Assembly: GCA_946902875.1 (NCBI GenBank)
Contig: OX336340.1
Span: forward strand, 19,545,566-19,609,565
Length of the DNA: 64,000 nucleotides
DNA from: Nematopogon swammerdamellus
Taxonomy: Eukaryota; Arthropoda; Insecta; Lepidoptera; Adelidae
Direction: 5' to 3'
Positions 18,878 to 47,800 of this stretch are shown here, piece after piece. The notes below the pieces were generated by a model. The model did no database searches, had not been told where the DNA came from, and saw only the letters and a program-made list of their open reading frames with translations. Made by a program: the position numbers and the translations under genes. How positions within the stretch are numbered: the stretch's first letter is position 1; the number at the start of each line of letters is the position of its first letter.

Positions 18878-21800
18878 CTATTCCTCATCTTCAACTTCGT
18901 CGTCTGTCGTGAACTCGCTCTCGTTGCCGGCCTGCAACAAACAAAACACTATCACACCTGCTGAGCTCCGCTTCCTACACCTGCCTTATGTATTCATGCC
19001 TCCCACTTTGGATCAGTGCATATGCAACGTGACATGGATGGGGCGGAAATAGAATAAATTTTTTGGCAATATGGGCGGCAACAAGCTATTTATTAGGCAA
19101 TACCTACATTTTTGTTTTTTTTTTATGAAAACTGACACGGTTGGCTACAACACCTACAACATCCGTGATGTCAGCCCATAACACCGGGTGAACTAGGTGC
19201 CATGTCAGTGCTTCCCTTCGGTCGAGGACATTATATTATAGCGGCCGGGATGGAATGAAGGCAGGTTTACTTACTAAAGAACTTATGAAATATTAGTTAC
19301 AAATCGATGGACAAACCTAAGCCAAATCTGTAACTCAACTGTATTGTTTGGAAATTCTGTTAAAAAAAAAAAATCTATTTAATTTTTAGGTTTCCGTATC
19401 CCATACGGAAGCCAAGTGTTAAGCAAAGTGTCAAAAGTTACTCACTATACCAGGATATATTTTTCAAATCCAGGAATTCCCGAAATTCCTGGGAATTTTT
19501 CAGAATTCCCGAAGGAGGTGGTTTTAACCACTCCATGTTGTCTTTTCGCCAACATTAGGTATTTATACTCTACCTATTCAGATCGACAAATGACGTGTCA
19601 AAAATTTGACAAAGGCTCTTTACACCTGATCCACTTAATTAAGTCCTTGCAGTCAGAACTTCAAAAACAAAACAAAAATCTGTTTTTGATCTTGTTCTCA
19701 AGCTGTATTTTCAATCGACTGTAGGCGGTGTTATTATGTGGATAGTCACTAAATGCTTGTAAAAATGATTATGAAAAAAAAGCCCTGCGAAGTTTCTTAC
19801 CGGTTCTTCTTCGTGGGTGTAATCGAATCGGATAGAACAAATTGTAACAAATTCGAGTACAGTCATGCTGTCTAATGAATACTTAATAAACAATATACAA
19901 TATACGATCCCTGTTGATAACACAATAAGTAAGTAGTACCTGGTCCTGTTTGTCGCTCTCCGAGTCGCTGATGTCCCACTGCGGGTGGTCGGTGGGCACG
20001 GCTGCCGCCTCCTTCACATCCAGCTTCATATCCAGCAGCTGGTCCATGCCGATGTACGAGTCTGCACACAATACGCACACCATCACATAATATTTCTGTA
20101 AATACCGCAAGTTAGCCCATATCAGTCACCTGTTATTACTGTCACGGAAACCATTAAACTAAAAATAATTAAAGAATGCCTTATTGTTAGTGTAATTAAA
20201 ACGATAGCCGCAAAAATAATTTATATAAAAGTGATACATAATGTGGACGTATCAAAATTAATTTTTTTTAGTAATTATGGGAATCACCGCACAGAATGAA
20301 ACGTCGGTCGAAACGGCTATGTAAATAGTTTGTGTTTTCCGTCCAGTTCAGTGTAGCCGGCACGACCGAAGGGATACACAGACGTGGCACCAAGTTCACC
20401 CGGTGTTATGGGCTGACATCACTGATGTTGTAGGTGATGTAGCCAACCATGTCAGGTTCCATAAAAAAAAAAGTTGCACTACTCGTAAATGTTTTTTTAT
20501 ATTCTGTGGTATATAACGATTTATCAATGACATCTATAGATGATGATTGGGAGGCCATTCCGCAACCACACGAGGGCGCTGAAGTGCGCCGGCGTAGTCA
20601 GCGCCGTGTGACAAGGTTCTATCTAGACGTACCCGAGCGCAGGCAGCAGGTGAGGGTGTAGAGACCAGGCCAGCGCGGCGCGGTGAAGCGCAGCTGCACC
20701 TCCTGCACGTCCACGAGGGCGGTGAGGTGCGCCGGCGCAGTCAGCGGCGTGTGAAAAGGTTCTATCTACACGTACCCGAGCGCAGGCAGCAGGTGAGGGT
20801 GTAGAGACCAGGCCAGCGCGGCGCGGTGAAGCGCAGCTGCACCTCCTGCACGTCCACGAGGGCGGTGAGGTGCGCCGGCGCAGTCAGCGGCGTGTGACAA
20901 GGTTCTATCTACACGTACCCGAGCGCAGGCAGCAGGTGAGGGTGTAGAGACCAGGCCAGCGCGGCGCGGTGAAGCGCAGCTGCACCTCCTGCACGTCCAC
21001 GAGGGCGGTGAGGTGCGCCGGCGCAGTCAGCGGCGTGTGACAAGGTTCTATCTACACGTACCCGAGCGCAGGCAGCAGGTGAGGGTGTAGAGACCAGGCC
21101 AGCGCGGTGCGGTGAAGCGCAGCTGCACCTCCTGCACGTCCACGAAGGCGGTGAGGTGCGCCGGCGCAGTCAGCGGCGTGTGACAAGGTTCTATCTATAC
21201 GTACCCGAGCGCAGGCAGCAGGTGAGGGTGTAGAGACCAGGCCAGCGCGGCGCGGTGAAGCGCAGCTGCACCTCCTGCACGTCCACGAGGGCGGGAGGTG
21301 CGCCGGCGCAGTCAGCGGCGTGTGACAAGGTTTTATCTAGACGTACCCGAGCGGAGGCAGCAGGTGAGGGTGTAGAGACCAGGCCAGCGCGGCGCGGTGA
21401 AGCGCAGCTGCACCTCCTGCACGTCCACGAGGGCGGTGAGGTGCGCCGGCGCAGTCAGCGGCGTGTGACAAGATTCTATCTAGACGTACCCGAGCGCAGG
21501 CAGCAGGTGAGGGTGTAGGGACCAGGCCAGCGCGGCGCGGTGAAGCGCAGCTGCACCTCCTGCACGCCCACGAGGGCGGGAGGTGCGCCGGCGCAGTCAG
21601 CGGCGTGTGACAAGGTTCTATCTACACGTACCCGAGCGCAGGCAGCAGGTGAGGGTGTAGAGACCAGGCCAGCGCGGCGCGGTGAAGCGCAGCTGCACCT
21701 CCTGCACGTCCACGAGGGCGGTGACGTGCACCGGCGCAGTCAGCAGAGTGTGTGACTTGCGGTCGCAAATGTAGCACCACCAGTACTCTTGCTTCTCCTA

Positions 21801-24800
21801 AGGGATGCATACATGTTACTGAACGGTTTAAAACTAAGCATTGTTGTGTTTGTGTATAGATTCGAAAGAATACAACATTTCTGAAGTGAATTTGGGTTTT
21901 TAGCTATCCGTATCCCGTACGGAAGCCTATTACTAAGCCTACGCCGTTTGTCTGTCTGTCTGTCCGTTCGTCCGTCTGTCCGACGGCTGTATCTCTTGAA
22001 CGGTAATAGGTAGCCCGTTGAAATTTTCACAGAATATGTGTTATTATGGCAGATATAACAAATAATAAAAAATAGAAAAAGTAAAAAATTAAGGGGGGTT
22101 CCCATACAAGAAACGTGTTTTTTATGTTTTTTTTTTGATTCGCGAGTGTGTGGAATCGAAAAAAAAAACACCTAACCACACTATATTTGTGAAGTGCAAT
22201 GTTCAAACACACAATGTGGAATCAAAACAATGTTTCCCCAGGAGAATATACATACATCTATAAGGTTTTCGTTATAATATAGGCAAACCAACTCACTTCA
22301 GGGAAGTACGGACAGTGCACTGGATGTGACGCTTTTGATCTTCCCTCTAATCGTTCGCGCTTCTGTAGCCTTTGTTGGAACCTGCAAATTCATACAGCAT
22401 TACTATAAAGATTCTATGCATGTAATTGAACTTTTAAAACTACAGGTAGGGATGCAAATGAAAAATCTGTATGATTTCTTATAATTCAAGAACGGCATTA
22501 ACTGATATTCAGGGTTGTCACCTGTGCAAACTGGCATATCTCTGGATGGATGCCAGCTAAATGCCATCACTCATCGTAATGTAAGAAGCCGATCAGTTAG
22601 GTGATCAAACGCAGGGTCAGGAAAATCGGAGTCCACTGTAGTCGAGCTTGAAAGCAAGCGAATGGCAAACTGAGAAAACTGAGCACCCTTTTGTTGTTGA
22701 CATTGGGCTTTTGAGACCCCATCGGTACTCAAAATAATTCCTTGTGACACCGCTAGGGTGTGGAATTATATTGTCTTCCGGCGAGTGTGTTTCCCGAATC
22801 CTTTAACCTCGGTGTCTTCAAACGTCGTATCAATGGGCTAGACAGCGTAGCAACAGTCCGCAAATCTGCTGGCATGGTGCCTCACTGAGAGTGGTTTCGC
22901 GAGGAGAGGGGTTTTTGGCTCGGTTGACTGTACCATTGGTCCCTCGACACAGCCACGCATGTTGGTTTACATAAAAAAAAACTATGACGCACTTCTCCCA
23001 TTCAGTATCGTCGTCCTCTACGGATGAGGACTTCTTGTCGTTGTCCTCCGTCTCCGACTCGTTGCCGGAGCTGTCCGACCCGCGCTGCTCCGCGTCCGAC
23101 CCGCCAGACACCTCCCAGTCATCTGCCAAACAAATGTACAACAATATAGAAAACTTTATAAGAAATGTTGACTCTGGTCGAAGCCACGGCACAGATTATT
23201 TAATAGTTCGTAACAGATAAATCATTTCTTAGAAAAAGTTCCATACCTTCGGCTTTAATAGCCTACTGTTTCACGTCGCCAATCGCTGCGTGCTAAAATT
23301 TACCTAAACGATTGAGTGTAAAGTGATTATTGCTTTACGCAGTTGCGTGGGCAAGCGCGTAGGTATGCTTCGCGCGGCTGACGAATTTTCACTGAATTAG
23401 ACCGCCGGCGTCCCGCCGGCCGGTAGGTAGTTAGCGCGCGCAAGTACATAGAGTGCGTGAGGCCTGGCCACGGGCAAAAGCTAGTGTAAAATTTAAGGAT
23501 TACATAAAAAAGTTATTGATAAATGAATTTCAGTGTATGACAGTAGTATCATTTTAGAATAGAGTAGTGGGTTCACACAATTTATGTAAACACCAACAAA
23601 GTCCCATTACAAGTGGTGAGTGATCATGGTATGACAGCCTCGGAAATTCGGTGGCGCTATAGATCGATGTCGGTGAGTGACATGACATCTAGTTCATTAT
23701 TATTATTTTGGGTTCAATAAAAATAAAAAAACTAAATAAATACCTTGATCATCGGCGTTTGGTTTCTTGCTCTCTTTGGTTTTCTTCACAACGCCGTTCG
23801 GTTGCGGAGACTTCTCTTCCTTGACTGGAGCCTGCGGCGTAGCGGGTGCTTCTTTGGGCTTTGCCACTTGTTTTGTCGCTTGGGGCTTCTTGGTTTTCTT
23901 TCCGCTGGCTTTCTTGGCTTGTTTCATCCACACGGGCCGCTTGGGGGCACTTTCTTTCTCCTTTTTATCATCGGCTTTTTCTGCACCTTCGCCGGTGTCT
24001 TCCTCCGCTTCTCTGTAAATTCAATCGCTTGTTATACCTTTATTTCAAAGAAACAGAGATTTGTCCGGCTTTTGCTGTTGCCACATAGGTCTCTGTTATT
24101 ATAATCTAGATGTTCCCGCGACTTCGCTTCAAGGTAAATTATCCTATAACCATTCTTACATGGGTAGTACTGGGCAGGGGATGCACCCCAATTTAACCAG
24201 GGTCAACCAAATTAGACCAGGGTCTTTCAACCTTTTTTATTAACAGGTACACTTTTTCGTCTACGAAAATTTCACGGCACACATTTACATATGTTCATAC
24301 AGAAAGCATGTGAAATTAAGAATACTAAAAACTATTGGCGACTTCGTACGTAATGTACGCTGTATATGTAATTTATCAGTGAAAACTCTCATTTTATCGG
24401 AGGATGTCAAAATGTTCTTATTACTTCCCTGCGAACTCGCATTAATTTGTTCAGATGTTAAACAAATCAATCAGAAAATGTCATTGTGGATAATCTATCT
24501 ATATAGACAGACGAAAAATTATGCTTTCTCTCTTCTTCCGCTGTCTTCATGCACATTTTGAATGAGTTACTTAGAATTCGCAGCACACCTGGATCTCCGG
24601 TTGAGAACCCCTGCATTAGACCTACCACGGACCAACCCGTTCTGTAGATCTTTTATTCACAGAACCGGGAAAATGTGAAACACACTGCCCATCTATTTCC
24701 TCCCAAATACAGCCTGGGGTTTTTCAAAAGGGGTGTGAAAAGGCTCCCGTCAAGCCGGCATGGCATTCACAATCCCCGTGCATCACAGAATGTCCATGGG

Positions 24801-27800
24801 CATCGTTAGACACCTAATTGTAGGTGAAACAATGCCACATGTCGCGTTATTGATAAAACATTGAATGGACGACGGTGCGTGCGTCGATACATCGGCGAGC
24901 GTCTCAGATTTTTCGCTTTATTTATTAGGATTGTATATTTGTGCCCAGTAATAGGTTACTTCGATATGTAAATTTAATTTTTTAGGTTTTGTGAGTTAAT
25001 CAATACATAGATGAAATTAATAAAATACAAGATACAATACAAGATATGTGTTTTTTAAAAGTTTTTTTTTTTATTTAAAAAACATGTCATACTTGAGTGA
25101 TTTTTCCTTGACTGTGGTGTCACCGAAAAGTTCCTTCATAGAGGATCTCCTGAGGGACACTGTCACCGTCACGATGGCTCCCGCAGTCACCTCTGTGGAG
25201 TTCTCGTCGTCGATCACTGTAACAATACATTTACATTGCGTGCAAACTGGATTAGACAAGTCAGATTGTCCATAGACTTATTCGAAAATAACTTTTATTC
25301 AACCGATTGTGGACAATGGCGCATACAGAACGACAAAACTTATAAATCTAAACTTAAGTAGAATTTCATACAATTTAATACATACATACAAACGATTTAT
25401 GCTCTACAAGCATTTATTAAAAAAAAAACTACATGAATGAAGTTACATGAGGTGAAAAGGCAGGCTTGAAGAGCTTTCTTCCAGCCAACCTTTAGGTTTA
25501 GTGTAGCTAAATGAGTATGTAGTGAAATATGTAGGTAGAACAGGTAGATTTGACGTATCAAATAGATTAAATTGATACAGGCAAACCGGCGACAAAAGAT
25601 AGTACACACATAAAAAACCAGCCAAGTGCGAGTCAGACTCGCGCACCGAGTATTTATTATTAGATGTTTTACTTTAGAGTTTGCACTAATAGTCATACCA
25701 TGTTTGACACTTGTAAGTATTACAGTTTTTATGATAGAGCCAAAACAAACAAAAAATATGTTTTATGTGATATAACTACAAATTAACGATTTTCGAATAT
25801 TTTCCTTTACTTGTGCTGCGAGATCTTGCTTCTTGCCAAATTTCATGATTGTAGGTCAACGGGATGTACCTACTCTATAGGTTTTGATGAGAGAGTATGC
25901 GAATATCAAAATATGTGACATAAATGGATTGCGTTGACTTAGAAGCTTGAATTTTGTACACCTCCAAGGGATTGTAGACCTTAATACTTGATATTAATTT
26001 CAACTTGATACTTCTAACCATTCCTGAGAAAAAGGGTCTTGACAGACGGATAGACAGACGGATGGACAACAAAGTGATTCCATAAGGGTTGCGTTTTTTC
26101 CTTTTGACGTACGGAACCCTAAAAAGTAAAACAAAAACAACACTAGGTACAATTTTATTTCACCGCATACACACACACACCCACACCCTTACAAACTCTC
26201 TAGCACCTATATACCTTTAGTTCAGTTAGATGTATTTATAACAATTAATTAGTAGGAAGAGTCGTAATAGTTCTTACTAGACAAAATGTATATTTTAAAG
26301 TAAGAATGATGTGTAAATAACTGTCAAATTGTATATTAACCTCTTGGCTTCCAAAGGGGCCGGCCGACCCCCAAATCCATACGCATTAGATGGCCTCACA
26401 ATTTCGTCTGTTGCTCTTTCAATAATTGTTTTCTTTAGGATTGACGAATAGTTAATAAAATTACCTCTGCACAGAGACCAAGTATGCCTATGGAAGGAAC
26501 CGACAGACGTTCTAACTCATTCATTTTTTTTTATGTAATCTGGTATAGGTGGCAGACCAAAGCACATGCTCCGACCAGCCAATATCACCTCCAAGAAGGT
26601 AGGTGATGATACCGGTGACTTCCCTGGATTGCTGGCTAACTGGACTAGAGGAGAACACAACCGAGGCTGCTATGCGGCCATCTTACATCCAGTACAGTCG
26701 GTTACAATTTGAGCCTACCGGGAGCCTAGGGGTAAGGGAAGAGACCTACAGTTTTACAGTGGTTCCGAACGGTGAAGAGTGAAGCAGCAGGTGTTAGGTA
26801 TGCACGTAAATTTTTTTGTCAGAAAAAACTCTTTGGTACACTCCGACCGGATTCGAACCTCGGACGTCTGGCATGAGAAGCCGATGCTCAAACCACTCGG
26901 CCCCTCGCAGTTTACGAAATATCTGGGTTTATGTCAATGTCGGCGCTCAAAGTCCCGACCGGCGAAAATGGCGTGGAAACCAAATGTAATAAGCAGTGTG
27001 CAAAAAGTGGTAATCATAATAAATAGGTGGGAAATCTGCAGTACTGTGTGGGGTCGGTACTTAAAAAGAATAGCCCCACTGCATCTCTCCCCGTCGCATG
27101 TCGTAAAAGTCGACTAAGGGATAGGGGTTTTGCACGAAGGTCCCCAACCAAGCGGGATTAGTTTGCAGGCCTAGAGCCAACCCCAAATCAACAACAACAA
27201 CAACAAATAGGTGGGAAATCAAGAAGTTAATAAAGAAATGTTAAATTTTAATTATGACAACGCACCTTCGGTATTAACATGGAAATCGATGTATGGCATA
27301 TTGCCGAGCGCCTTGATGAGATCGTCGTACTGCTTGTCGTTGAGCCCCCGCAGGATCTGCCGCCGCTCGTCTCCGGGCAGCTGGGCAAACTGTAGCAGCG
27401 ACTTGACGTGCTTCTTCCTGTTGCTGAAGTACTTGAGGTTGTCGTCGCTGATGTGCGGCAGCTGCAGGAGAGGAGACTTGTACTCCCACAGCGCTTGAAC
27501 GATCATCGGCGAGAGCTTCATGCAATTCTCGATTGTCTCGATCGACGGCAGGCGGGAAACTGGAAGAGAATGGTGTAAATACATTTTGAGAAACGTTCGG
27601 CTGACAATTTATCATATCTTTTTTTTATGAAGTCCGGTATCACACATTACTTAATAGTTACTTCGTAACAGATAAATCACTCCATAGAAAATGTTCCTAC
27701 CTTCGGGCTTTAATAGCCTACTGTTTCATGTCGCCAATCGCTCCTATCGTGTTTTACATCATTTTGAGGGTAATTTAATTTAATTGGCTATAAGTATGAA

Positions 27801-30800
27801 TAGAGTTTATTGATCTGACTTTCAAGCGTGTCCTGGTTGAGTTGGATCGTATAACTACCACAATACTCACTCCGTCTAGCGTACACGAGCGCCATCAGCT
27901 GATTTACACAGCTCACCATCTCGCCGATGAGATTGGAGCACTTCTTCACGATGTACTGTCGGTCGCACTCGAGCATGTACTGGTTGAGTTGGATCATATA
28001 ATTACAAAAATACTCACTCCGCCTAGTGTACGCAAGCGCTATCAGCTGATTGACACAGCTCACCATCTCGCCGATGAGATTGGAGCACTTCTTCACGATG
28101 TACTGTCGGTCGCACTCGAGCATGTACTGGTTGAGTTGGATCATATAATTACAAAAATACTCACTCCGCCTAGCGTACGCAAGCGCTATCAGCTGATTGA
28201 CACCGTTCACCATCTCAACGATGAGATTAGGGCACTTCTTCACGATGTACTGTCGGTCGTGCTCGAGCATGTCCGGGTTGAGTTGGATTTTATAACTACA
28301 ACAATACTCACTTCGTCTAGCGTACTCGAGCACTATCAGCTGATTGACGCAGTTCACCATCTCGACAATGAGATTGGGGCACTTCTTCACGATGTACTGT
28401 CGGTCGCACTCGAGTGTGTCCTGGTTGAGTTGGATCGTATAACTACAACAATACTCACTCCGTCTAGCGTACGCGAGCGCTATCAGCTGATTGACGCAGT
28501 TCACCATCTCGACGATGAGATTGGGGCACTTCTTCACGATGTACTGTCGGTCGCGCTCGAGTGTGTCCGGGTTGAGGCGGATGCGAGTGAGGTGCGCATG
28601 GAGAAGCACCCGAGCCTTGATGCTGTACGCGCGGCAGAGCGGCTGCTCTTTATTCTTCTCGCCGAGGTTGGGGAGGTCCCGGAAAAGCTGTGGAGAATGA
28701 TTTATAGTCACTTTTTTTTAGCTCCTTTGCTATAACAATCTGTCTCTACGTGAAGGACATTCAGTAATAATGTATGGCTTCTTTCTTTGGTTGGCTTGCT
28801 AGGTATGCGTCCATCATAATCAATTAATGTGTTTCTTGGCACCTTACACTGTTCTTTCAATAAGACAGATACAAGCGCAGAAGAGTACAAAAACTTATTT
28901 TGAACACAATATATTTGATATAATAGCTTATTTCAATTTATCCCATCGTCATATTATTGTCCTAACATTATGTAAGTGAAAGTTGGTTTTCAAAAATTCA
29001 CACTTCATTTCATACGATCCTACTTTTATTGTGAGCAGAGCAGAATTTAAAGTAGTCAGTCAGCGTGTACGCGTACACTGCTGGACATACCCTCCCCTAT
29101 TTTCCTCCAGTCTTCCCGACCTTCAGCAGTACGGAAATTAAAATTAGGCTATATGTTAATTCAGATTTCACATCTGATACACATTTCGCTCCCGCGAAAA
29201 AGTCGCAATATTTTAGGGAGGCAGTGCGCGCGCGGCGCCGACATTCGAAAGGTTAAGCCCAATCTATTGAGCATTATTGAAGTAATTAACATTAATCATC
29301 AAACAGACTCACCAGAGGCACCTCCTCATTATCTGTAATCCTTTCGACAACCTCCGAGTTGAGTCGGCGGTCGAACTCGCAGCTGGCCGCTAGGATCATG
29401 AGCGCCCGCTTCAGCGGCATCGACGGCGTCTTGTGGAAGAAGAAGAAGTACATCTGCGTCGTGTCTAGCAGCACCTGATCTCCGGAGAACCGGATCGAGC
29501 GGTACCACCATGTACCCACCTGTTACAATCATAACTCATCAAACCATATCCGCCCCATTATCCGAACCCCCATTATCCGAGCTCAGAATAAATGAGGTCG
29601 TGTTTAACCGAGCTTAAGGCGGAAATAAGACTCAAAAGGTCAAATTTAAACGACATTATTTAGCTATTGGTAAAGATAAAAAATCTGTAAAAAATATATG
29701 TTACGTATTGATCTTTAATTAACAAACATAGTGAAAAAAATTATATTTTACTACTTTGAAAAGGTAAAGTAAATCTCCAAAAAATAACAAAAAGTACGAA
29801 AATTTTACTTTCAAGTTAAATTATCTTGAGAAGCATAAATTATTTCAATACAAGATCCTCATTGAAATATAGATAATCTTTTTCCCTACAATCGTAGCGA
29901 AATAAATATTGTTCCAATACAAATAAATACATTTCCAACACGTGAAATTTAATAAATAGAGTGATTTCGCGCAAACGTTCATCGTCGGCGCGACGTATCA
30001 GCCACCGCATGACTAGAATGAATCTCGCACCTATTTACATCTTCATACAATTCGTGTTTCAATCATCAGTGCTCGGGTAACACGGTTTGAGTCTTATTCC
30101 CGCCTTAACCAAGATGTAAAATTTGAGATTTTAATAAAAGCGACCATCGGCGTCATTGCAGACTAGCCGGTGAGGGCTTGATGCGAGCCGAAACATGTAG
30201 CACTCTGCAAGAGAGCAAGAGAGGCCACTTGTTATTGATTTATTTTGATAAAATCGACAGCATTACCTACATAAATACTTAACTAACATTCACTCTACAA
30301 GTTTGTATGTTCTCATACATAAATGCATTGAGATTTCATTGAAATACTTACAACAGTAGGCAGAGCGACCATAAACACAAGACCATAGAGACCGAGCACC
30401 CACACACTGTTCTCCTTCTCTACGATCCAGCTCGGCAGGGCGATGCCGAAGCTCATCGCTCCCGGTCCGTCGGGGTTGCCGTACTTCTCCCAGTTGCGCC
30501 GCGCCTCATCGTCCGTTAGCGCCTGAGAAATATTAATTAATTATTTATTTATTTTTACTAGAAAACATACAGCCATTCACAATGTAGATACACTTTTTTT
30601 ATGCCTAAAAGTATGGCCAATTACATGTTGCCTGATTAGTTTTTTTTTATTTACGAGTATATTGATTTTATGTGCACATTTATATATTAAACAACTAAAC
30701 ATAACTAGCGGCAATGCGAAGAGTATGTCGGGTGATCGGATACGACCGATAACATCACTTGTCGCGAAATCCACGCTCAGCTTGATCCCATGCCATACAT

Positions 30801-33868: not shown

Positions 33869-33935
33869 CAAAGAGTTTGTATTACGTTGCTGCGCTCCTT
33901 GCGTTGGAGCGCAGCGACGTAATACAAACTCTTTG
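33869..33935. repeat. Short hairpin with 30-bp arms in the ISCA1 5'UTR intron
   Basis: caaagagtttgtattacg plus ttgctgcgctcc pairs with its complement 33906-33935 with one mismatch and a 7-nt loop. Confidence 0.8.
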
Positions 33936-34020
33936 ATATTATGTACTTATAAATTTATCTGCACATCCAACATCAAAATTAATTCACCAGTCATTTAATT
34001 TCAGGCGTAAGCTGTCCCGA

Positions 34021-37000
34021 ATGGCCACGAAGGTGGTAGCTAGCGCGACCGTTCGCGCCGTCACAAAACGCACGTTGTCGTCCAGGGCGGCGTTAGTGTT
34101 GACTCAGTCGGCGGTGAACAAAATCAAAGAGATCATGAGCAACGATGCGGGAAAGAAATGCATCGGACTGAAAGTTGGTGTAAAGCAACGCGGTTGCAAC
34201 GGTCTGTCGTACACGCTGGACTACGCCACGACGAAGGACAAGCTCGATGAAGAAGTCAAGCAAGATGGTGTTACCGTCATCATAGACAAGAAGGCGCAAC
34301 TCTCATTATTAGGTAAACATACATACTATAGATCAGTAATTGTGCCGTGTGGGGCCGGTACTTTAAAAGAATAACCCCACTGCATCTCTCCCCGTGTATG
34401 TCGTAAAAGGCGACTTAAGGGATATGACTCCCTTCTTATATTACTAGGTGGTAGGGTTTAACCCGCCCGGGTTGGCACCACCACACTGAATGAAAGGTCG
34501 GTCGAAACGACTATGTAAATAGTTTGTGTTTTCCGTCCAGTTCAGTGTAGCCGGCACGACCGAAGGGAAGCACTGACGTGGCTCCAAGTTCACCCGGTGT
34601 TTTGGGCTGACGTCACGGATGTTGTAGGTGATGTAACAAACCGGGTCAGTTTCCATAAAAAAAAATTAAAAAATCTAAGAAACTTATTCAGTAAGTATGT
34701 AGTACAGTATGCCCCAGTAAATAATGTATATTGAGCTTTAGAAAGGGACCAATCCGGTTGTACAAGGATGTGCGAGTTCGTGCGACAGGGACGAACCTCT
34801 ACAATGGGATGGTCTTTTTTTTTTTTTTTTTTTATGGAAATCTAAGGTCTCTTCCTAAAGTTCCATGTGCATGCCGGGTACTGTACCAAGCTATGCTGTA
34901 AGGCAGGGGTTCCCAATAATTTTTATATTACTACTCCCTTAAACATGTTAATATGCATGCTCGTTTTTTTTATGGAATCTTACACGGTTGGCTACATCAC
35001 CTAAAACATCCGTGATGTCGGCCCATAACACCGGGTGAACTAGATGCCACTCAACTTTCTTTCTTATTCCCTTTATTTCATGTCGGTTACACTGAACTGG
35101 ACGGAAAACAAGAACTATTTACACAACCGTTTCGACCCACGTTTCATTCAGTGCAGTGGTAGCAGTCCGGGTGGGATGAACCCTACCACCTAGTAAGGTA
35201 AGAAGGGAAGGAACCTACGGTTTTACGTGGAATCCGAATCACGGTCAGCCTCCAACGGTCGAGCGGTCAGCCATCCATGTACTGGCCGCGCTCAGGGTTG
35301 CTTGCCAACAGTGGACCGACCGCACCACTGAGCTACCGAGGCTGACTTATGGAGAGAATTTGAAAACGCCACTGCAGACCCTACAGATTATGGATAGATA
35401 GAGAGAGAGGGAGGTCGAGAGCGGGACTGATGGTTCTCCGCGTCCTAGTCATAGCAGACTAGCTGAAGAGGGCTTGCCGAGGGCCGAAATGTTAATGAGC
35501 TACGTGTCCATCCGCTAGTCCCTTCCTCGATAGACTCCTTCCCCTACTGGCAGTGGGCCCGGATATGTTTAGTGAAGCCGCTGCTAGCTACGCTCATATC
35601 TTCCCCTTTCTCTAATAACACCTTTATGTATTTAAGTATTTAAGGGTATATAAAAAGTCATCAATAAACTGGAATTTGAAAAGTTTCCAAAAATCATCGA
35701 ATGAACTACTTATCGCAAACAATATGACAATAGACTCGCCATAGTGCACGCAGATTTAAAATTTCACAGCAAGCTATGTGCAATTGTGTGGTGGTGTGAC
35801 GCCTCAGGGTGTTGCGACGTACAGGTTAGGTGCTATTTTGATTTGAAGTATGAAAAAATAATAATTTAAAGTCTTGTATAATTTTTCATGTTGCATTTCT
35901 TTTTAAGTTTGGTAGTGAACAATATTAAAGTAATAAGCATTAGTAAATATTTTTTTTATTATTTTTGTAATTATCTCTTTATTTCAGCCAACTAGGGCCA
36001 TATTAAAAAAAAAACGGCCAAGTGCGAGTCGAACTCGCGCACCGAGGGTTCCGTATCGCCACATCATGGCCAGCTCCATCTATGGCGTGTTATGAAATGC
36101 TTCATGTTAGTTAAATGTCATGATTAGTTAAAATGCTTCATACTACTTATTTTCGGTAGATAGCACGCTTACACTTATACACTTTTTAGTTTCTTCAATG
36201 GGAACCGCCGTGAATTTTTTACTTTTTTTTATTTTTTTATTATTTGTTATATTGGCCATAATAACAGATATTCTGTGAAAATTTCAACGGGCTACGTATT
36301 ACGGTTCAAGAGATAAAACCCTCGACAGACGGACGGACATACAGACAGACAGACGGCGTAGGCTTAGTAATAGGGTCGCGCACCCGATACGGAACCCTAA
36401 AAATACATATTAAATGTCTTAACCTAAGCACAAAAAATTACTTTTTCTCCACTTGTGCTTGTATGGGTCCCAATGGAGACTCGTATGCGTCATATTGGTC
36501 TGCTGACACGGTATATCAGGTGCGCGTGGTGTGGACGCAGATTGTGTCGGCACATTATGAGTGCAAAAGTCGCCAGAGATGGATCAGACCATGGCATCAG
36601 AGCGTTGTCAATGCTAACATTAGGAAACGTGCTTTGTTGTTCTCATGAACCGAAAATAGTAGGTACTATAATGTGTAACAGCGGTAAAAGCCTAAACCAG
36701 GGGTTTTCAACCTTTTTATTAACTGGCACACTTTCATCTGCGAAAATTTCAGGGCACACCACATTTATGTTCATAAAAAAATCATGAAATTTTGAAAACT
36801 AAAAACTATTGGCGTCTTCTTACGTAATGAGAGTACCCTGTGTCCGAGTATGTCAAAATATTCTCATTATTTCCCTGCGAACTCGCATTTAATTTGTTGA
36901 GGTGTTCAATCAGATCAGTTAGAAAATGTCATTGTGGATAATTTATCTGTATAGATAGATAGACGAAAAATTATGCTTGCTCTTTTCTTCAGCTGTTTTC

Positions 37001-37232: not shown

Positions 37233-37363
37233 AGAGGCTTTACTGTAGCGCGGATTAGGCAAGAATTATGGCAAAAAATATATATATAACCAAATAGTAT
37301 GGTAGAAATACAACCATGTGAATTACATATTTCGCTCGCCCTTTCGATCTTTACAAGTCAAAT

Positions 37364-38022
37364 ATGTTTTTTTTACACGCACTAGCTTTGATGCATCTTA
37401 TATCTGCTAAATTGACAGCGACCATCTCGGGATCCTCGGAGTCGGAACTGTCGCACAACCTAAACTTTAGTCACCATATCGAGGGCAAGGTCAAGCTGGC
37501 TTCTAAAAAATTGGGTGTACTCAATAAGATGTGGTACTTCACGTCAAGCCAAAAGCTGCTTTTCTATAAATAACAGATCGGGTCCTGCTTGGGGTACTGC
37601 TTGCAGCTGTGGGATGGCTCCGCCAAATATCAGCTTGCGCCTTTGGACTCCATCCAGCTTCGAGCTGTGCGACTAGTGGGTGACCCCGAAGTGTTCCGCG
37701 ATCTAGAACCAATCAATCTCCATAGGGATGTCGGCTCCCTAAGTGTGTTTTACCGCTTATTTCATGGGAGGCTCGGAGGAGCTGTTTAACGCGATCCCGC
37801 CGTCACCTTTCCGCTTCCGCACCACACACACTGGGCCGGAACTGCATCTGTACACGCTGGACTTACCGCGCATGCGTACCAACCAGATCTGCAGATGTTT
37901 TCTCTACAGAACCGGTAAACTCTGGAATGCTCTCCCTGCCCATTTATTTCCCCCCAAGTACAGTCTCGGGTCTTTCATACGGCGCAAAATGTCGCGCTTT
38001 CAAATAAAAAATAAATAAATAA
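37364..38022 (+). pseudogene. LINE reverse transcriptase C-terminal fragment downstream of ISCA1
   Basis: Consecutive frames encode pieces of a non-LTR RT C-terminus: HIEGKVKLASKKLGVLNK, LGYCLQLWDGSAKYQLAPLD and GPELHLYTLDLPRMRTNQ. They are separated by a stop near 37571 and a frameshift near 37780. The copy ends in an A-rich (AAATA)n tail at about 38005-38025. It starts roughly 130 bp after the ISCA1 stop. Confidence 0.75.
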
Positions 38023-38219
38023 ATAACAAGCTTAGTTTGATGGGCTCTCAAACATGTGTGTAGAAATGGTCAAAAACATCTTTAGCACTTTGTAAAGCTG
38101 TTCCACAATACCTTCGAAGCATTTCCTAGTTCATTATTTAAATGGTTTGTGTTGTTTTCACCTATAGGTAGACAAGCTACACTCCCGAAATCTCAAATAT
38201 AATTAATTTAAAAAAATTA

Positions 38220-38407
38220 TCAAACAGCTTTACTCACGGTTTCACTCCGAACTATGTGGCTCGACGTTTCGTGCCAAGTTCAGTTCTCCGTTCAGTTCTC
38301 TGCCAACCGTCGCACAAGGCAGAGTGCTCCATGAAGATGGGCCATACGCTTGGCCCGAAACGTCGAGCCACATAGGTCGGAGTGAAACCGTGAGTAGAGC
38401 TGTTTGA
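38220..38407. mobile_element. Foldback element with about 58-bp arms
   Basis: ctcacggtttcactccga ... tgtggctcgacgtttcg on the left and the complement at 38349-38407. No ORF. Confidence 0.75.
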
Positions 38408-38466
38408 TTTAAAATAATGTCTAACAACCACGGTTATTTAAAAACCCATATATAGACTCTTATCGT

Positions 38467-38820
38467 TTTTTTTATGTAATCCGGTATGTGTGGCTGAGTC
38501 AGAGGTGCCAAAGCACATGCTCCGACGAGCCAATATCCCCTCCGAGAAGGTACATGCCATTCCGGAGATTTCCCTTTGGGTTGCTGGCCTAGAGGACTGG
38601 ACTAGAGAGCACAGCCGAGACTGCTATGCGGCCCTCTTACATCCAGTAGGGAAGGGACCTACAGTTTTACATCAGTTCCGAACAGTAAAGCGAGCTGTGG
38701 TGTAGGTTTGCACGTAATTTTTTTTTTTATTAGAAAAAACTCATTGGCAATCGCCGACCGTATTTGAACCTCAGATCTCTCGTAAGAGAAGCTGACCCTC
38801 AGATCACTTGGCCACCCGCC
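38467..38820 (-). mobile_element. SINE, family B
   Basis: Body and diverged tRNA-like head of family B, with an internal deletion near 38645. Confidence 0.7.
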
Positions 38821-38874
38821 GCTTACTAACACAATAACGGTTGACAACTGCTTTTGTGCTCTGGAATAATTGGC

Positions 38875-39187
38875 TTTTTTTTTTATGGAAACTGACACGG
38901 TTGGCTACATCACCGATGATGTCAGCCCATAACACCGGGTGAACTTGGTGCCACATCAGTGCTTCCCTTCGGTCGTGCCGGCTACACTGAACTTGATGGA
39001 AAACACAAACTATTTACATAGCCGTTTCGAGTGACCTTTCATTCAGTGCGGTGGTACCAACCTGGGCGGGTTAAACCCTACCACCTAGTAATATAACAAG
39101 GGAGTCATATCCCTTAGTCGCCTTTTACGAAATACACGGGGAGAGATGCAGTGGGGCTATTCTTTTAAAGTACCGGCCCCACACGGT
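38875..39187 (-). mobile_element. SINE, family A variant
   Basis: Minus strand, from the accgtgtggggccggtac head near 39187 to an A run at 38875-38884. Confidence 0.75.
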
Positions 39188-39384
39188 ACCTGTGCTGGGG
39201 AAAGAATGTGCAGTCTCCGGCAGCAAATAATATTCGTGTCGAGCTTTAGAAAGAGACAATCCGGTTGTAGAGCGTCGTCCCTGTCGCACGGAGACGTGCG
39301 AGTTGATAGGATGGACAACGGATCTACAAACGGATGGTCTCTTTCTAAAGTTCGACATGCCTTATTTGCTGCCGGGAACTGTAC
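39186..39384. mobile_element. TIR element, family E
   Basis: Inverted arms near 39218-39264 and 39337-39376 (cggcagcaaataatattcgt versus gccttatttgctgccggg) around gcgtcgtccctgtcgcac. Confidence 0.6.
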
Positions 39385-40455
39385 CGAGTTTGTCTAAATA
39401 ACACAGATTGAGTGATAAAGGGTGTTGTCATCATATATGTATGTACCATGTAATATCTTGTGTATATCTTTTTTAGTTCGCAAATTGCACTTAATATTTG
39501 TAGACTGTGATAATAATTGTAGTTAAATTAAATGTGTAGGTATGTAATTTAATTTTTATTATTTGCTCAGAATTTGGACATGACATGAAAAAAAAACTAA
39601 AACATTAATTCAGAGACAAGGTTAGAGTTAAAGGAGAAAGGCTATTTTGGACTCACCCCTCGAATCTCTCCAATAACAATGAACTATATGCCATTGTAAA
39701 GTTCACTTTAAATAGAACATTTGTTAATACTACGACATATTTTAATTGTGTGCTGTTTCAGAGTTATGTCCTTTTAAATATGGCGAATGGCGAATTGCAT
39801 TATAGCCCTATGCCCCCGTATACCTATGCCTAAAAAGTGTGTGTGTACGTACGTGCGTTAGAAGTTATACATCTCTCTAAGTTATAAGTTATAGGTTTTT
39901 TTTATGTTTTTGAGTATTGTAAGAGTTTCAAGATATAAAGATTTTTTAGTTTTTCGAGTTTTTTGAATGTTTTTTTTTTTTTTTTGTTATTTACCTTATA
40001 TTACAAGCGCACGCCGTTCGCCGCAAATTCTAAAAAATATTTTAAATAAGTAAATAATTAACAACATAAGGGCATTGGGCTATCAAGTAACTCACAATTT
40101 TTAAAAGGACATAACTCCGAAACGGCAAACAATTGAAATATTCTACTCAAAGAGATGTTTCCAATGGTATATACGGTATATAATTCATTGTTATTGATTT
40201 GAGAATGGGCCCAGCTGCCATAAATTTTGGCCTTGCATGCTCCTTTGAGCTAATTAATCTCAGGAGAACGCAATTTCTTGGAATTAGTTTTAACAGAAAA
40301 TTATCGTTTACTATGTGCGTAAGCTTAAATTTTTTTGCTTCGAATTATCATCTTATCCTGATGCGGATGTATAGAGATGTACCGTGAACCATTCATCATG
40401 GCATTCTCCAGATCATTTGGAGTACAAAATGTATGTAGCATTTTTCTCTCAGATT

Positions 40456-40885
40456 ATTTTTAGGGTTCCGTACGGGACCTTATTACTGTCTGTGCCTACA
40501 CTGTCTGTCCGCCTGTTCTGCCTTTAAAGGAGTGTATCTTTTGAGGCGTAATAGGTAGCCGGTAGAAATTTTCATAAAATGTTATGGCTTAATAAAAAAA
40601 AAAACAAAATGTAAAAATTAAAGGTTCCCCAACAGAAAAAACTGTTTTTTTTTTTAAAAATTTTTGTTCTTGCTTTATCGTAAAAAAGGTAATACGTAGG
40701 TACAATCGGCAACCTTGGTGTTATTATAGTGCAAACTATAAAGTAAAATAACAACTAATAAAAATTGCCCATATATAGTGAGAGAGAATGATCCAGAACT
40801 AAATGAAAGAAAACACTTTTTTTTTGGTTAATAGGTACATATGATGGAACCCTGTGCAAGTCCAACTCGTACTTGGCCGGTATCA
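40456..40885 (-). mobile_element. Interspersed repeat, family D, inverted
   Basis: Reads tttagggttccgtacgggac at the left and cgtacttggccggt at the right, so it is a minus-strand copy. Confidence 0.6.
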
Positions 40886-41694
40886 GAAAATAAATTTTCA
40901 TACAAAATAAAAAATCTAAGCAATATGTCAAGTAGGTACTTATATAGTTCATAAAAAAAAATCTTTACGTCTCAAAATAAGCTGGAGAAAGGTCTGTGGT
41001 ATGTTATACACCCTATATCAAACAGAATAGATTTTTGTCATTATTCTTGCCACATAAAATCACATCGCATAAGTAATATTTTTGTTACATAGTTTAGTAG
41101 TGTTGTTTTTATTAGTTAATGAAAGTAGGTAACTATGGAAACTATAGAATTTAACCTATTTTATCCTGACTACGGCGAACCCAAAGGAGGGTTATGTTTA
41201 TGTATGATTAAAATAAAAGATTAATTTTTGATAAAGTAAATTGAGTTACCGTAATTTTTTCAAACTATCGCTATCAGTATAGTTCTGTGTAAAATATTGT
41301 AATTTTAAACATGGTTCAATCAAAACATATAGTCGCGACTACATTTGTTTGTGTGAAGTAGATAACTTATTTTATTACACTGTATTATAGTGTGTAAATA
41401 AACCCAACTTGTATTAAGAAATTTATCTGTTTCACAAAGACCATTTCCTATACATGTTATTTCTCTTCAATAAAGGCAATATTGAATTCGAAATGTTTCA
41501 TTTTTACCTTTCAATAAAAAATTTTAAGTAAGTGAGCACACCTATTGCATGTGTATACAAGTTAAGTATACCGATTTTTGTCAATACTTAGAACACAGAA
41601 AAGGCTAATTCAAAGCATTTCAAGCATTTGATAGAACCATCCTTTCGTTATCGAAATTAAAACTAATTAGTAGGTACTTATTTCAGGTTTGAGA

Positions 41695-42040
41695 AAAAAA
41701 CCGGCCAAGTGCGAGTCGAACTCGCGCACCGAGGGTTCCGTATCGCCATGTCATGATCAGCGCCACTCACGCCATCTATGTATTAGTTAAAATGCTTCAT
41801 AATCTTTTCGGTAAGTAGATGGCGCGCATACACTTTTTGGTTTCTTCTATGGGGACCCCCGTGTTTTTTTTCTTTTTCTTATTTGTTCTTATATCGGCCA
41901 TAATAACACATATTCTGTGAAAATTTCAACGGGCTATCTATTACGGTTCAAGAGATACAACCCTCGGACAGACGGCGGCGCGGCGGCGGCCGGCGTAGGC
42001 TTAGTATTATGGTCCCGTACGAAGGATACGGAACCCTACA
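41695..42040 (+). mobile_element. Interspersed repeat, family D
   Basis: Same start, middle and end blocks as 36010-36402, with a (GGC)n-rich stretch near 41975 in place of CAGA repeats. Confidence 0.65.
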
Positions 42041-44220
42041 AAAACATGATAAACCTGGATAAACCATCCGGGCCATTCAACATTAGTCTGTGAAGTAGGC
42101 GAGCGAGAGGCTTTCGTTCTGATAAACCGCTGAAAAACTACACAACAAAATGATGACCTCAAATTACCGCGCATTTGTTTACTGCTGTGCAGTGTTGCCA
42201 AATAATGCATTTTGCTGGTAAACTATTTTTATTTCATGAGGGAAACAACAGAACGGTTGGGTGAGGGGGGTAGACGGACGCTGATCGCTGTTCTGTGGCG
42301 AAAACCACGCGCACACAGACTACCTGGCGTACTATTAAAATCTGGCGTGTCGTGTTGTGTTGTGCTGTGGCAGTGGCATGGCAAAGAAAGAGTATTGGGC
42401 AGTGGTGGCAGCACGGGTGGCAGTATACATACTGCATCTGCAATCAATGTCTGCAATATGCAATAAATAAAGTGCATAAATTTAGTACTAAGTATTGCTA
42501 GAATTAAAGCAAACTGAGCAAACTGTGGCTTGATTATATTTCGTGTTGTTGTGGGGCGTTGTTTTTTTTTTACGACTTCCAGTGCCACTTCTCAACACCA
42601 CACCACACGTCACGCAGCGAAGCGGCACATGAAAGAACAAAATTGACTCGCTATAATCAGCTGATTGTAAACGAGAAGTGGTAGAAACGAAACGTAACAA
42701 AAACGACATGCACCGCCTCAACATTAGGTTAAGGTATATAGAAGTTGCGTCGCGTAGCGACGCATCTTCTTTATATTAGCCCTGGTTATTTCTTTTTTAA
42801 CCTCCAAAACATCACAGCTGATATATAGCGCAAGAGTCAATTTTGTTTTCTCATGTGCCAGACCCGTCAGGCAGCAGGACACGCCAAAAGTAGGTACCTA
42901 ACCTATTTCTGGCTATTTATTTACAAATGGAAAAAGGTCACCCATCTATCACACAATTTTGAAATAAAATATTCTGTTCTAATGTCGTTTATATAGTGGA
43001 TTTGTCATACTATTTAGTTAGTAGGAAGTTTCAGATCGATTTGGCAACCCTGGAGTGGTGTCAGTGTGGGTCAGCGTTGCCACATATACGGATTTGTTCG
43101 TATTTGTACGGATTTTTTCAGCTCAATACGGAAATACGGAATTGAGTCTGGGTTTATACGAAATTACTCGTAGCCCTTCCGTAAAAGAAATCATAATAGC
43201 ACCTTTTTGAAATGCTGCACTGGCAACATTGAAATTCTTACTTAGGAGGAATATCCCCCGTGAGAAAATCTTCGAATTTAAATACAAATGACAGCTTTCC
43301 GGACAACAGATTAGGTAGATTAGGTTAAGTATATTTTAGAACACAGATATATCAGTTTGCTGTCATTTGATTTAATTTTCATTGAATCCGTTCCCCGTCT
43401 CGTTCTCTCGTTCTCGTTCCCCCATGCATATTTAGAGTAGGATGTAGGTACAAGTGAGATAAAGCTCTAATGTCGGGTTTTATCTTCAAATAGGTGGACT
43501 GGACGGGCGGGACGAAACAATCACGGCACCATCTGTGGCACGGTGGCGAGGAAGACGCCGCCAAATATTGGGTGCGTGTACCCAGTCCTCTCGAAGTTCT
43601 GCTTAAATTGATTATGCCTGCCTACTCCACCCCACTCCAGTGCTTGTGTAGAGCGAATCTTTTCAGCCATAAACTTGATGAAAAATAACACAAGAAATAT
43701 GTTGGGAACTTGGGAACGCATACACTAAGTGGCCTACTCTACGCGAAATAACTGTTGAGAGGGAAAGAATGCTACAACCTTAAAGTGGACGACACGTTAC
43801 TCAGTAAAATGACCAAAAATATGTACAAAAAATAAAACATACGTATAGTTAGGTGTAGGAAAAATGCAGACTTACTTATGGTATAGTGTTGTTACATTAA
43901 CTAGGGTATATATAATTAAATTCATTCAATTGTTTAATTATGTTGGTTACATTACATTTTGTATGATGAACATTTATTGTATAAAGTATCTACAGTACAG
44001 TACAGACGATCGATTATACGACTTATTAATAATTACCATACACCTGAATTAATTGTGCTGGTGGAACAGTTAGTTTTATCGTTTACGTAGTACCTATACC
44101 AACCCTATTCCCCGTGCCAACATCCTCTGCCTAAAAAACATAACATACGGGTTTTATACGGATTTCGATAGTAGAAATACAAAATTCGTCTCCTCAAAGG
44201 TTGGCAACACTGGTGTAGGT

Positions 44221-44457
44221 ACTCAGTTCAGGCGTTCGACACCTGAAAGACATTTCGGCTCCTTCCTGGCTCCTTTGGCTCCTTTCGCGAACACTGGTAA
44301 TTTTTTTTTTAAACCACCAAAACATCACTCATTCATCCATCATACTCATCACATCAAGCATACATAACACACTTTCCTTCGAGCCGAAGTCTGCCGGAAG
44401 GAGCTAAAGGAGCCAAGAAGGAGCCAGGAAGTCTTTCAGGAGGCGCACCGCTCAGTT
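44221..44457. repeat. Imperfect inverted repeat upstream of PAIP1
   Basis: Arms of about 75 bp (44221-44296, 44382-44457), with several copies of ggctcctt and aaggagcc, around an AT-rich centre; the right arm ends about 390 bp before the PAIP1 ATG. Confidence 0.65.
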
Positions 44458-44847
44458 TAGTCGTCCCGTGTCCGTCAGCAAAGATTCCGTCAGAAAGTCA
44501 AGCCAAAGAGGATATAACCACTGCAGTCAAGCAAACAAGCAAAAAAAATCAAGCTTGAATCAAGCAAAAGCAAATGGTGTGGTGATTGTATGGATTGGAT
44601 GGTGGGACGGACACTAAATTTATTAACTATCTCTATAGCATCCGTCCGTCCGTATCCATATGCCTATGGCCTGAGGTGCACAGTGACGACTTGACTAGCT
44701 TATATATTGGTAATCTGTGACTATATAGCTTGTTTACGTGTCTTGTTCGAGTTTGCGGTTTAGATCGTTGGATGGAACTTTCTGTCGGATTGTGGAGCAG
44801 GCTAGTGAGTGTCTTGCGGTAGCGAGCCGCAACGCAATAGCGTGGAT

Positions 44848-47800
44848 ATGAACAACGGATTCGATGGCGGCGGGTCACGCGGCCGGGGTCGCGGCGTGTG
44901 GCAGGAACAGGCGGAGAGAGCTCCGCGCGAGTTGCGTCGGCCGCATGCAGCCGCGCAGGAGATGGACACTGAACAGCCACGAAGTAACTTACTTTTCTCA
45001 TAGATCCCTATTGCGCCGTATCACAAATCTTCGCGTCTCGTAGAGATACATTGATATTGCCCGAATCTCTTTGTTTGTTTTTCAAATGTAGGTACTAACA
45101 TTACGAATGCTTTGTGTTGGATGTAAATTCTGTCACGTCTGATTGGAGCGCGACACTTTCTCAGCGAGAAAGTTGACACGAGTCATATCGAGAACCGAAG
45201 AGATGAAAATAGATAGCTCCAACATTGATACCTACCTGTGTAATTAGCATGTTTATAATATTATTTATGTTGATCCTTTAGGATCTTATTAGAACTAGTA
45301 TTAGACTGTAGATTGACAATCTACAATTGGACAGTAAGAGTTCGAGCAGACAACCAATTCTTATAAATCCAACTAAACTGTTGAGACGTATTATAAAACT
45401 TGCAAAATTTAAGCAGCATGACATGACGCTAACTCATCTGTTTTGTTGGTACCAACTCTCGGCGACTCAAGTAAAAAGTTGGTACAACTAAAGTCGTACA
45501 ACTCCTACAGCGGCCAACTTTTTAGTTGGCCACCGACTTAAAAGTTGGGCTCCTACCTACGCTGCCCTATGCAGAGCGAACGACTGAAGGAACAAACAAC
45601 CTCAACGTTTTTTTTGTTGGGTTGGAGAAAAATCGGCAGTCATGCCTAACTCAGCAAAACTGCTCAATAAAAACCCGAATTGAATAATGTTTGGAATGTA
45701 TTGAAATGAATTGTGCTTGCGACTGAGTGTGTTATCATCAGTTAAGAAAAAAAGTGTGAGTCGAACTCGCGCACGGAGGGTTCCGTATCGCCATGTCATG
45801 GTTAGCGCCACTCACGCCATCTATGGCGTGTTATGAAATGCTTCATATTAGTTAAAATGCTTCATACTCTATTCGGTAGATGGCGCGCGCTCATACACTT
45901 TTTGGTTTCTTCTATGGGAACCCCCATGAATTTTTTACTTTTTCTTATAGTTATTATTTGTTGTTATATCGGCCATATTAACACATATTCTGTTAAAATT
46001 TAAACGGGCCAATGTTAGGTCTAATAGGCCAACAACCTATTACGGTTCAAGAGGTATAACCCTCGGACAGACAGACAGACGGCGTAGGCTTAGTAATAGG
46101 GTCCTTTGCCGCATACAGAACCCTAAAAAATGGGCTTTGCTCTGGTTCTTATTTCTTAGAATATTTTTTTTTAGATATTACTCGTACTCTCATAAAAATG
46201 TTTAACGCAAACAAACATTTTCAAAAAGCCCCTGTGTCACTTTCGCAGGTGAAACACCGAAGTACACCCTGTCTGCGGAAGCTAAGGAGTGGTTCCCCCC
46301 GAACTACGTGCCCCCAACTCAGCACGGCATGGGCGGGCTGACGGCGTACCCCGCGGAGCCCGCCTTCAACTATCGCTCGGGCCGGTACTCCGTCCAGGAC
46401 AGACTGCGCATCCACCAGGCTCCGGACCCTTATAACTTCGATGACATGGCCAACAGCCTCGACTCCGCTGAGAACATTGATCTGAGGGTGAGTGCCTTAC
46501 TCTATAATGACATGGCCAACAGCCTCGACTCCGCTGAGAACATTGATCTGAGGGTGAGTGCCTTACTCTTTGGTGACATGGCCAACAGCCTCGACTCCGC
46601 TGAGAACATCGATCTGAGGGTTAGTGCCCTTCTCTTTGTTGACATGGCCAACAGCCTCGACTCCGCTGAGAACATCGATCTGAGGGTGAGTGCCTTACTC
46701 TATAATGACATGGCCAACAGCTTCGACTCCGCTGAGAACATTGATCTGAGGGTGAGTGCCTTACTCTTTGGTGACATGGCCAACAGCCTCGACTCCGCTG
46801 AGAACATCGATCTGAGGGTTAGTGCCCGTCTCTTTGTTGACATGGCCAACAGCCTCGACTCCGCTGAGAACATCGATCTGAGGGTAAGTGCGTTACTTTG
46901 TGTTTCATCTAAACTAAATCAAATTTTCACTTTCTCTCCATGTAATATAAAATATACCCTGCACTGTGCTGCTATGCAACTTTTTTTAATGTAATAAGGT
47001 ATGGGCTGAGTCAGAGGGGCGAGAGCACATGTTTTGATCAGCCAATATCATCTCTGAGAAGGTGCCATATTAGCGGTCAACTGCGGATCCAATAACCGCT
47101 TCCTTTGAGCCAAAAATTGGATGATACTTTTCAATTAGTTCATAAGGACAAAGTAATGTAGGACCTAAAGATATATCTACGTAAATGTTAGTTTTTCTTA
47201 TAGAAACTGACGCTACATCACCTACAACATCTGCGATGTCAGCCCATAACATCTTGGTGAACTAGGTGCCAATTGGGTGCCTCGGGTGTCGATCTGGGGC
47301 ACCACCGTGCTACCGAGGCTTGCACGTGAAGTTTTTTTTTATGTAATCCGGTATGGTTGGCTGAGTCGAGGGGCCAAAGCACATGCTCCGACCAGCCAAT
47401 ATCACCTCCGAGAAGTTGGCGTCATACCGGAGACTTCCCTGGATTGCTGGCTATACTGGACTAGAGGAGCACAACCGAGGCTGCTATGCGGCCATCTTAC
47501 ATGCAGTACGGCGGTATCAGCCCAGTCGGCTACAATTTGAGCCTACCACCTAATAAGGGGCAAGGGAAGGGACCTACAGTTTTACACCGGTTCCAAACGG
47601 TGAAGCAGCAGATGTAGGTATGCACGTAAATTTTTTCGTCAGAAAAAACTCATTGGTACATGCCGACCAGATTCGAATCTCGGACCTCTCGCATGAGAAG
47701 CCGATGCCCAAACCACTCGGCCACGTTCCTCGCTGAGATCTACATCTAGCTGGACACTCAGTATTCACAATAGAAAGAAAGAAAGAAAGAAGAAGAAAGA

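What the first reader, a model, noticed from the sequence alone, without database searches (positions are those of the whole stretch)
20568..46904. Three exon-end plus splice-donor minisatellites in two neighbouring genes share one architecture
Seen: SEC63 exon 5, SEC63 exon 11 and PAIP1 exon 2 are each followed by tandem repeats whose unit is the exon's 3' end, the donor and about 21 nt of intron (junctions uncertain by 1-2 nt). Copy numbers are 5, 8 and 7; units are 147, 142-143 and 66 bp. The genes lie on opposite strands and the intron parts are unrelated in sequence. Inference: a common mechanism may duplicate DNA across 5' splice sites in this genome, perhaps using a break or nick a fixed distance past the donor, or such arrays may be kept as donor clusters. 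I know of no described class with this structure.
Basis: partly seen in the sequence, partly recalled or inferred. Interest (0 to 1): 0.92.

Follow-up and report, generated by a model that had tools for sequence, protein, structure and literature searches.

The report
Splice-donor-spanning tandem repeats in insect genes
In two neighbouring housekeeping genes of a moth-like insect, the end of an exon together with its splice signal is repeated in tandem five to eight times, a pattern already known from lancelets as 'mirages', and splicing probably hides most of the extra copies.

Summary
SEC63 exon 5 (5 copies of 147 bp), SEC63 exon 11 (8 of 142-143 bp) and PAIP1 exon 2 (7 of 66 bp) each carry a tandem array whose unit holds the exon's 3' end, a GT donor and about 20-23 nt of intron. 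Protein similarity makes the window lepidopteran. Three of six window arrays with unit >=60 bp span a modelled donor (random placement P=2.7e-4). The class is not new: lancelet 'mirages' have this architecture. A fixed 21 nt is not shown: n=3, one junction reads 20 or 30 nt, and both SEC63 arrays run 49 and 64 nt past their last donor. Best reading: ordinary tandem duplication, tolerated because splicing at the first donor leaves later copies in the intron. SEC63 fits (exon 5 copies decay away from the exon; exon 11 read-through meets a stop). PAIP1 fits badly: seven in-frame, stop-free copies whose exon part is far more conserved than the intron part, so it may be translated. Predicted proteins of four other moths show exon or exon-end duplications in these genes. 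No RNA, reads or genome-wide scan were available.

The parts
21632..21797 (-). SEC63 exon 11 up to its first donor; its last ~113-123 nt are copy 1 of the array
   Evidence: spliced model (start set at TTAG|GAG by orthologue match)
20569..21754 (-). SEC63 exon 11 array: 8 donors (first intron bases 21631, 21489, 21346, 21204, 21061, 20918, 20775, 20632), spacing 142/143, then a partial copy to about +64 after the last donor
   Evidence: TRF; dissection
28459..28687 (-). SEC63 exon 5 up to its first donor; its last 118-124 nt are copy 1 of the array
   Evidence: spliced model
27822..28582 (-). SEC63 exon 5 array: 5 donors (first intron bases 28458, 28311, 28164, 28017, 27870), spacing 147, then a partial copy to about +49
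   Evidence: TRF
46249..46487 (+). PAIP1 exon 2 up to its first donor; its last ~46 nt are copy 1 of the array
46442..46904 (+). PAIP1 exon 2 array: 7 donors (first intron bases 46488, 46554, 46620, 46686, 46752, 46818, 46884), spacing 66, higher-order repeat of 3 units (198 bp); frame open through all copies
   Evidence: TRF (66 and 198 bp rows)

Best explanation
The arrays are minisatellites of the kind called 'mirages' in lancelets: tandem duplications covering an exon's 3' end, its 5' splice site and a short piece of intron, later expanded and reshuffled by unequal exchange or slippage. They are tolerated because every copy brings a donor: splicing at the first donor leaves the mRNA unchanged and turns later copies into intron. 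Shown here: the architecture, the excess over random placement, the decay of later SEC63 exon 5 copies, and the stop codon and frame-shifting unit lengths in the SEC63 exon 11 array. Inferred: use of the first donor, the duplication mechanism, and that a selection filter rather than donor-directed breakage puts surviving arrays on donors. PAIP1 is a possible exception whose copies may be translated.
For: Arrays and donors. First-donor splicing of 12 exons gives a SEC63 of 750 aa (751 with exon 11 starting at GAG; C-terminal exon not modelled) that many insect orthologues match over 98-100% of its length. Residues not seen at that position in 28 matched orthologues (of 29 tried) rise along the SEC63 exon 5 copies: 0, 1, 3, 6, 7. 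In that array exon and intron parts vary alike (22 of 118 against 5 of 23 columns, p=0.77; 29 against 6 parsimony changes, p=0.52). SEC63 exon 11 read-through meets a stop four residues past the exon end and 142-nt units break the frame. Higher-order TRF periods of 198 and 285 bp are usual for minisatellites. Lancelet precedents.
Against: No RNA or long-read data, so donor use and array length are untested. In PAIP1 the exon part is far more conserved among copies than the intron part (3 changes in 46 sites against 12 in 20, p=1e-4; with intron +7..+16 only, 3 against 5, p=0.006), which plain neutral intronic copies do not predict. SEC63 exon 5 is also open through all copies, and its changes lean, not significantly, toward synonymous (14 nonsynonymous, 9 synonymous, neutral ratio 256:77, p=0.08). 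SEC63 exon 11 shows no decay gradient: unseen residues 1, 4, 1, 2, 2, 1, 1, 1. Three of three donor-only has only P=0.031.
Confidence: 0.7

Rival explanations
1. The PAIP1 array (and perhaps SEC63 exon 5) is coding: splicing uses the last or several donors, so the protein gains up to six extra repeats of 22 residues just before its MIF4G-like region.
For: All 7 PAIP1 copies are in frame without a stop. Exon part 2 of 46 variable columns against 9 of 20 in the intron part, p=1.7e-4; 3 against 12 parsimony changes, p=1e-4. On a small matrix of 14 window donors the last donor (GTAAGT, 6.1) scores just above the GTGAGT ones (5.7), and two inner donors read GTTAGT (1.3).
Against: The unit is 66 bp with effectively four unit types, so selection is hard to tell from gene conversion. 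One of the exon changes is Leu to Phe. No protein among the 310 scanned shows such a repeat at this exon. SEC63 exon 5 copies show no such contrast.
Confidence: 0.35
2. A donor-directed mutational process exists in this lineage: breakage or template switching tied to transcription or splicing recurrently duplicates DNA across 5' splice sites with about 20 nt of intron.
For: Three arrays in two genes, intron parts 19-23 nt on the preferred junctions; excess on donors P=2.75e-4.
Against: A selection filter gives the same pattern without targeting. One junction reads 20 or 30; two arrays end at +49 and +64; the Plutella prediction implies about 12 nt. Of 18 donors tested by local alignment, the 15 without arrays scored 14-24 against 141-210 at the three array donors.
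Confidence: 0.12
3. Assembly artefact: mis-joined reads or collapsed haplotypes created or resized the arrays.
For: No reads seen; some SEC63 exon 11 copies are 100% identical.
Against: SEC63 exon 5 copies are 87-93% identical and PAIP1 copies 88-98% with an ordered 3-unit pattern, which a simple artefact would not produce.
Confidence: 0.05

Closest known systems
Lancelet (Branchiostoma) 'mirages': Adh, troponin C, globins BflGb6/BflGb9, PGBD5
   Same: Minisatellite-like tandem repeats that span an exon-intron boundary and repeat the splice signal, units of 10-160 bp; BflGb9 has the 3' boundary of exon 2 duplicated, and PGBD5 repeats abut 5' splice sites. For Adh3 and globins regular splicing is reported despite them (PMC3087553 and PMC3902484, passages seen).
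   Different: Here in a lepidopteran; all three cases are on donors, whereas lancelets also have acceptor-side arrays; one case may be translated.
[quoted passage not shown]
   Same: By its title, one minisatellite supplying several splice donors.
   Different: Seen only as a reference title in two papers; the paper is not held. That the gene is human 6-16/IFI6 and that its units are much shorter is recalled.
[quoted passage not shown] potato RdRp case)
   Same: Tandem duplication that carries splice signals into a new copy (PMC3443670 and PMC4974935, passages seen).
   Different: There a new intron is made from an AGGT-bearing or intron-exon segment; here the first-donor model only lengthens an existing intron.

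Membership tests
Mirages | Minisatellite-like tandem repeat spanning an exon-intron boundary | tested here: met
   Three arrays
Mirages | Repeat units carry the splice signal | tested here: met
   20 of 20 full units keep GT at regular spacing; +1..+6 invariant in 13 of 13 SEC63 donors, PAIP1 varies only at +3
Mirages | Normal mRNA is still made | not testable with these tools
   No RNA data; only a first-donor model that matches orthologues
Mirages | Length differs between haplotypes or tissues | not testable with these tools
   Single assembly only
Mirages | Homogenised inner copies, more distinct copies at the cluster edge | tested here: inconclusive
   SEC63 exon 11 copy 1 is lowest (93-96% to the others), PAIP1 copy 7 is 89-91% but inner PAIP1 types differ as much; SEC63 exon 5 shows no such pattern
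Intron gain by tandem duplication | A new intron with donor and acceptor from the duplicated segment | tested here: inconclusive
   The first-donor model needs no new intron; spliced RNA not seen

The most novel reading that the evidence does not exclude
Lepidopteran genes recurrently grow donor-centred minisatellites, and in some of them, as in PAIP1 here, the array is in frame and translated to a variable extent, so that a run of competing near-identical donors sets the number of peptide repeats in a housekeeping protein.
Probability: 0.2. Interest if true: 0.75.

Novelty: new member of a known kind. Interest (0 to 1): 0.45.

Why it matters
The mirage papers seen here treat them as a lancelet phenomenon. 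Three in one 64-kb stretch of a lepidopteran genome, with leads in four other moths, would suggest a wider, under-annotated class. Runs of near-identical donors in essential genes are natural experiments on donor choice, gene predictors can misread them as coding repeats or extra exons, and they are raw material for exon or intron gain.

Tried and rejected
A fixed 21-nt break was examined by reading both edges of each array; it is not demonstrated. Selection on donors: invariance in SEC63 is not clearly beyond that of the rest of the well-preserved units.

Diverged copies at other splice sites were sought by local alignment of 80 nt exon + 25 nt intron against up to 3 kb of the neighbouring intron, with 60 shuffles of two-base blocks each: SEC63 11 donors and 11 acceptors, PAIP1 7 donors and 7 acceptors. 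The array donors scored 182 (SEC63 exon 5), 210 (SEC63 exon 11) and 141 (PAIP1 exon 2); no other site exceeded 25. Lowest shuffle counts among the rest: SEC63 exon 1 donor 23 (0 of 60 as high), SEC63 exon 12 acceptor 25 (1 of 60), PAIP1 exon 4 donor 22 (2 of 60); with 36 tests a few such are expected. The ends of PAIP1 exons 6 and 7 were set approximately there and in the donor list of the placement test. SEC63 exon 12 donor was not tested. Donors of other genes in the window were not modelled, so the placement P is a lower estimate.

Survey of internal repeats: the 310 proteins listed by three searches (120 of 1321 hits; 85 of 85; 105 of 105), all SEC63 or PAIP1 relatives, no other gene. Four have internal duplications: P0028 Operophtera SEC63 exon 12, P0121 Leguminivora PAIP1 exon 4, P0184 Plutella PAIP1 exon 6, P0206 Phthorimaea SEC63 exon 10. 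All four are lepidopteran: 4 of about 86 against 0 of about 224, Fisher p=0.006; on the first two searches alone 3 of 85 against 0 of 120, p=0.07. Unnamed rows were counted as lepidopteran by rank, an assumption made after seeing the result, and isoforms or two records of one species are not independent. Only P0184 reads like an exon end plus donor read-through (VRVS); P0206 is a clean 31-residue exon duplication. These are gene predictions; no genomic sequence was seen.

Not used: the SEC63 exon 5 read-through line is in a wrong frame (the right frame is); the exon 11 edge comparison used period 142 and is out of register (the edge was read); PAIP1 exon 7 donor was misplaced and fell out of the donor matrix.

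Full report
What is there. Tandem Repeats Finder reports the three arrays at the stated places. Gene models built from reading frames, splice signals and orthologues give SEC63 on the minus strand, 12 exons modelled and the C-terminal exon not, and PAIP1 on the plus strand with exon 2 at 46249-46487. Splicing at the first donor of each array gives proteins in register with insect orthologues. The closest named SEC63 proteins are lepidopteran (83% over 70% of the query for Choristoneura and Pectinophora; 75-77% over the full length for several butterflies; the best row of all, 80%, is unnamed). The species was not identified. Pfam finds DnaJ and Sec63 domains in SEC63; the (partly mis-joined) PAIP1 composite had no Pfam match, so the name PAIP1 rests on orthologues.

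Anatomy. SEC63 exon 11: 8 donors, spacing 142 or 143. SEC63 exon 5: 5 donors, spacing 147. PAIP1 exon 2: 7 donors, spacing 66. Anchored on the exon side, the unit holds 20 (or 30), 23 and 19-20 nt of intron. The intron parts are unrelated in sequence. After the last donor, similarity goes on to about +64, +49 and +20, so the two SEC63 arrays end in a partial copy and their original right breakpoint cannot be read. TRF also sees periods of 285 and 198 bp; PAIP1 copies 1/4, 2/5 and 3/6 are pairs at 98%.

Chance. Six TRF arrays have a unit of >=60 bp (shorter-period rows left out). Three span one of 19 modelled donors; random placement gives this with P=2.75e-4. Donors of other genes in the window were not modelled, so the true value is higher, and the window was picked because a reader noticed these arrays. 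If a unit overlaps an exon at all, donor-only is expected in 0.39, 0.39 and 0.20 of placements, so three of three has P=0.031. None of 18 acceptors tested has a comparable copy.

Which copies are used. In SEC63 exon 5, residues not seen at that position in 28 matched orthologues number 0, 1, 3, 6 and 7 from copy 1 to copy 5; exon and intron parts vary alike; the 14 nonsynonymous and 9 synonymous changes lean toward synonymous but not significantly (p=0.08). Copy 1 thus looks like the exon and the rest like drifting copies. SEC63 exon 11 shows no such gradient (1, 4, 1, 2, 2, 1, 1, 1), but read-through hits a stop four residues past the exon end and two of the seven spacings are 142, not 143, so its later copies cannot be coding in series. 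In PAIP1 the picture is reversed: all seven copies are open, exon parts differ in 2 of 46 columns and intron parts in 9 of 20 (p=1.7e-4), or 3 against 12 parsimony changes (p=1e-4; p=0.006 if only intron +7..+16 is used). This fits translation of the array, or gene conversion anchored on a constrained first copy; the data do not separate them.

Mechanism. Every step can be ordinary: a tandem duplication across the exon end, expansion by unequal exchange, survival because the duplicate brings a donor and the first donor still gives the normal mRNA. Arrays wholly inside exons would lengthen or break the protein and tend to be lost. This filter explains a donor bias without donor-directed breakage. 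It is inference; no RNA was seen.

What is known. Two open papers describe the same architecture in lancelets under the name mirages: one on globins, citing Adh, and one on PGBD5, citing Adh and troponin C (PMC3087553 and PMC3902484, passages seen). In PGBD5 the repeats (2 or 7 x 60 bp, 3 or 6 x 108 bp depending on the assembly) abut 5' splice sites. The original Adh paper was not found under the DOI I recalled. A 1995 paper titled as describing a minisatellite with multiple splice donors in an interferon-induced transcript was seen only as a reference. A paper on earthworm metallothionein genes notes exon 4 duplications absent from the transcript (PMC12783039, passages seen), perhaps related. 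Searches joining Lepidoptera or insect with repeat and splice terms found no moth case (none; only the lancelet PGBD5 paper). The library holds open-licence papers only, so this does not prove absence from print.

Other moths. Among 310 listed SEC63 and PAIP1 relatives, four have internal duplications of exons or exon ends, all four lepidopteran. Plutella PAIP1 reads exon end, VRVS, exon end again, as expected for a donor read-through with a 99-nt unit and about 12 nt of intron. The others are whole or partial exon duplications. They are predictions without genomic sequence, so they are leads only.

Verdict. It is a new, lepidopteran instance of a known kind, with one case (PAIP1) that deserves an RNA test.

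Noticed in passing
window 11653-13341: Foldback-like element: 48-nt inverted repeats at the ends (92% complementary) with 68-69 bp tandem subrepeats in opposite orientation inside.
   Followed up: partly
window 52170-54857: Non-LTR retrotransposon reading frame (endonuclease and reverse transcriptase domains) inside the PAIP1 intron between exons 4 and 5.
   Followed up: partly
window 33937-34374: Reading frame with an iron-sulphur assembly domain (PF01521) between SEC63 and PAIP1; ISCA1-like by recall.
   Followed up: no
P0121 (Leguminivora PAIP1 isoform X2): A 34-residue part of exon 4 appears twice, joined by ICLFEWCST, perhaps a duplicated exon end recruited as an extra exon.
   Followed up: partly
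window 55146-55370: Two tandem copies of a 112-bp AT-rich unit (93% matches) between the retrotransposon frame and PAIP1 exon 5.
   Followed up: no
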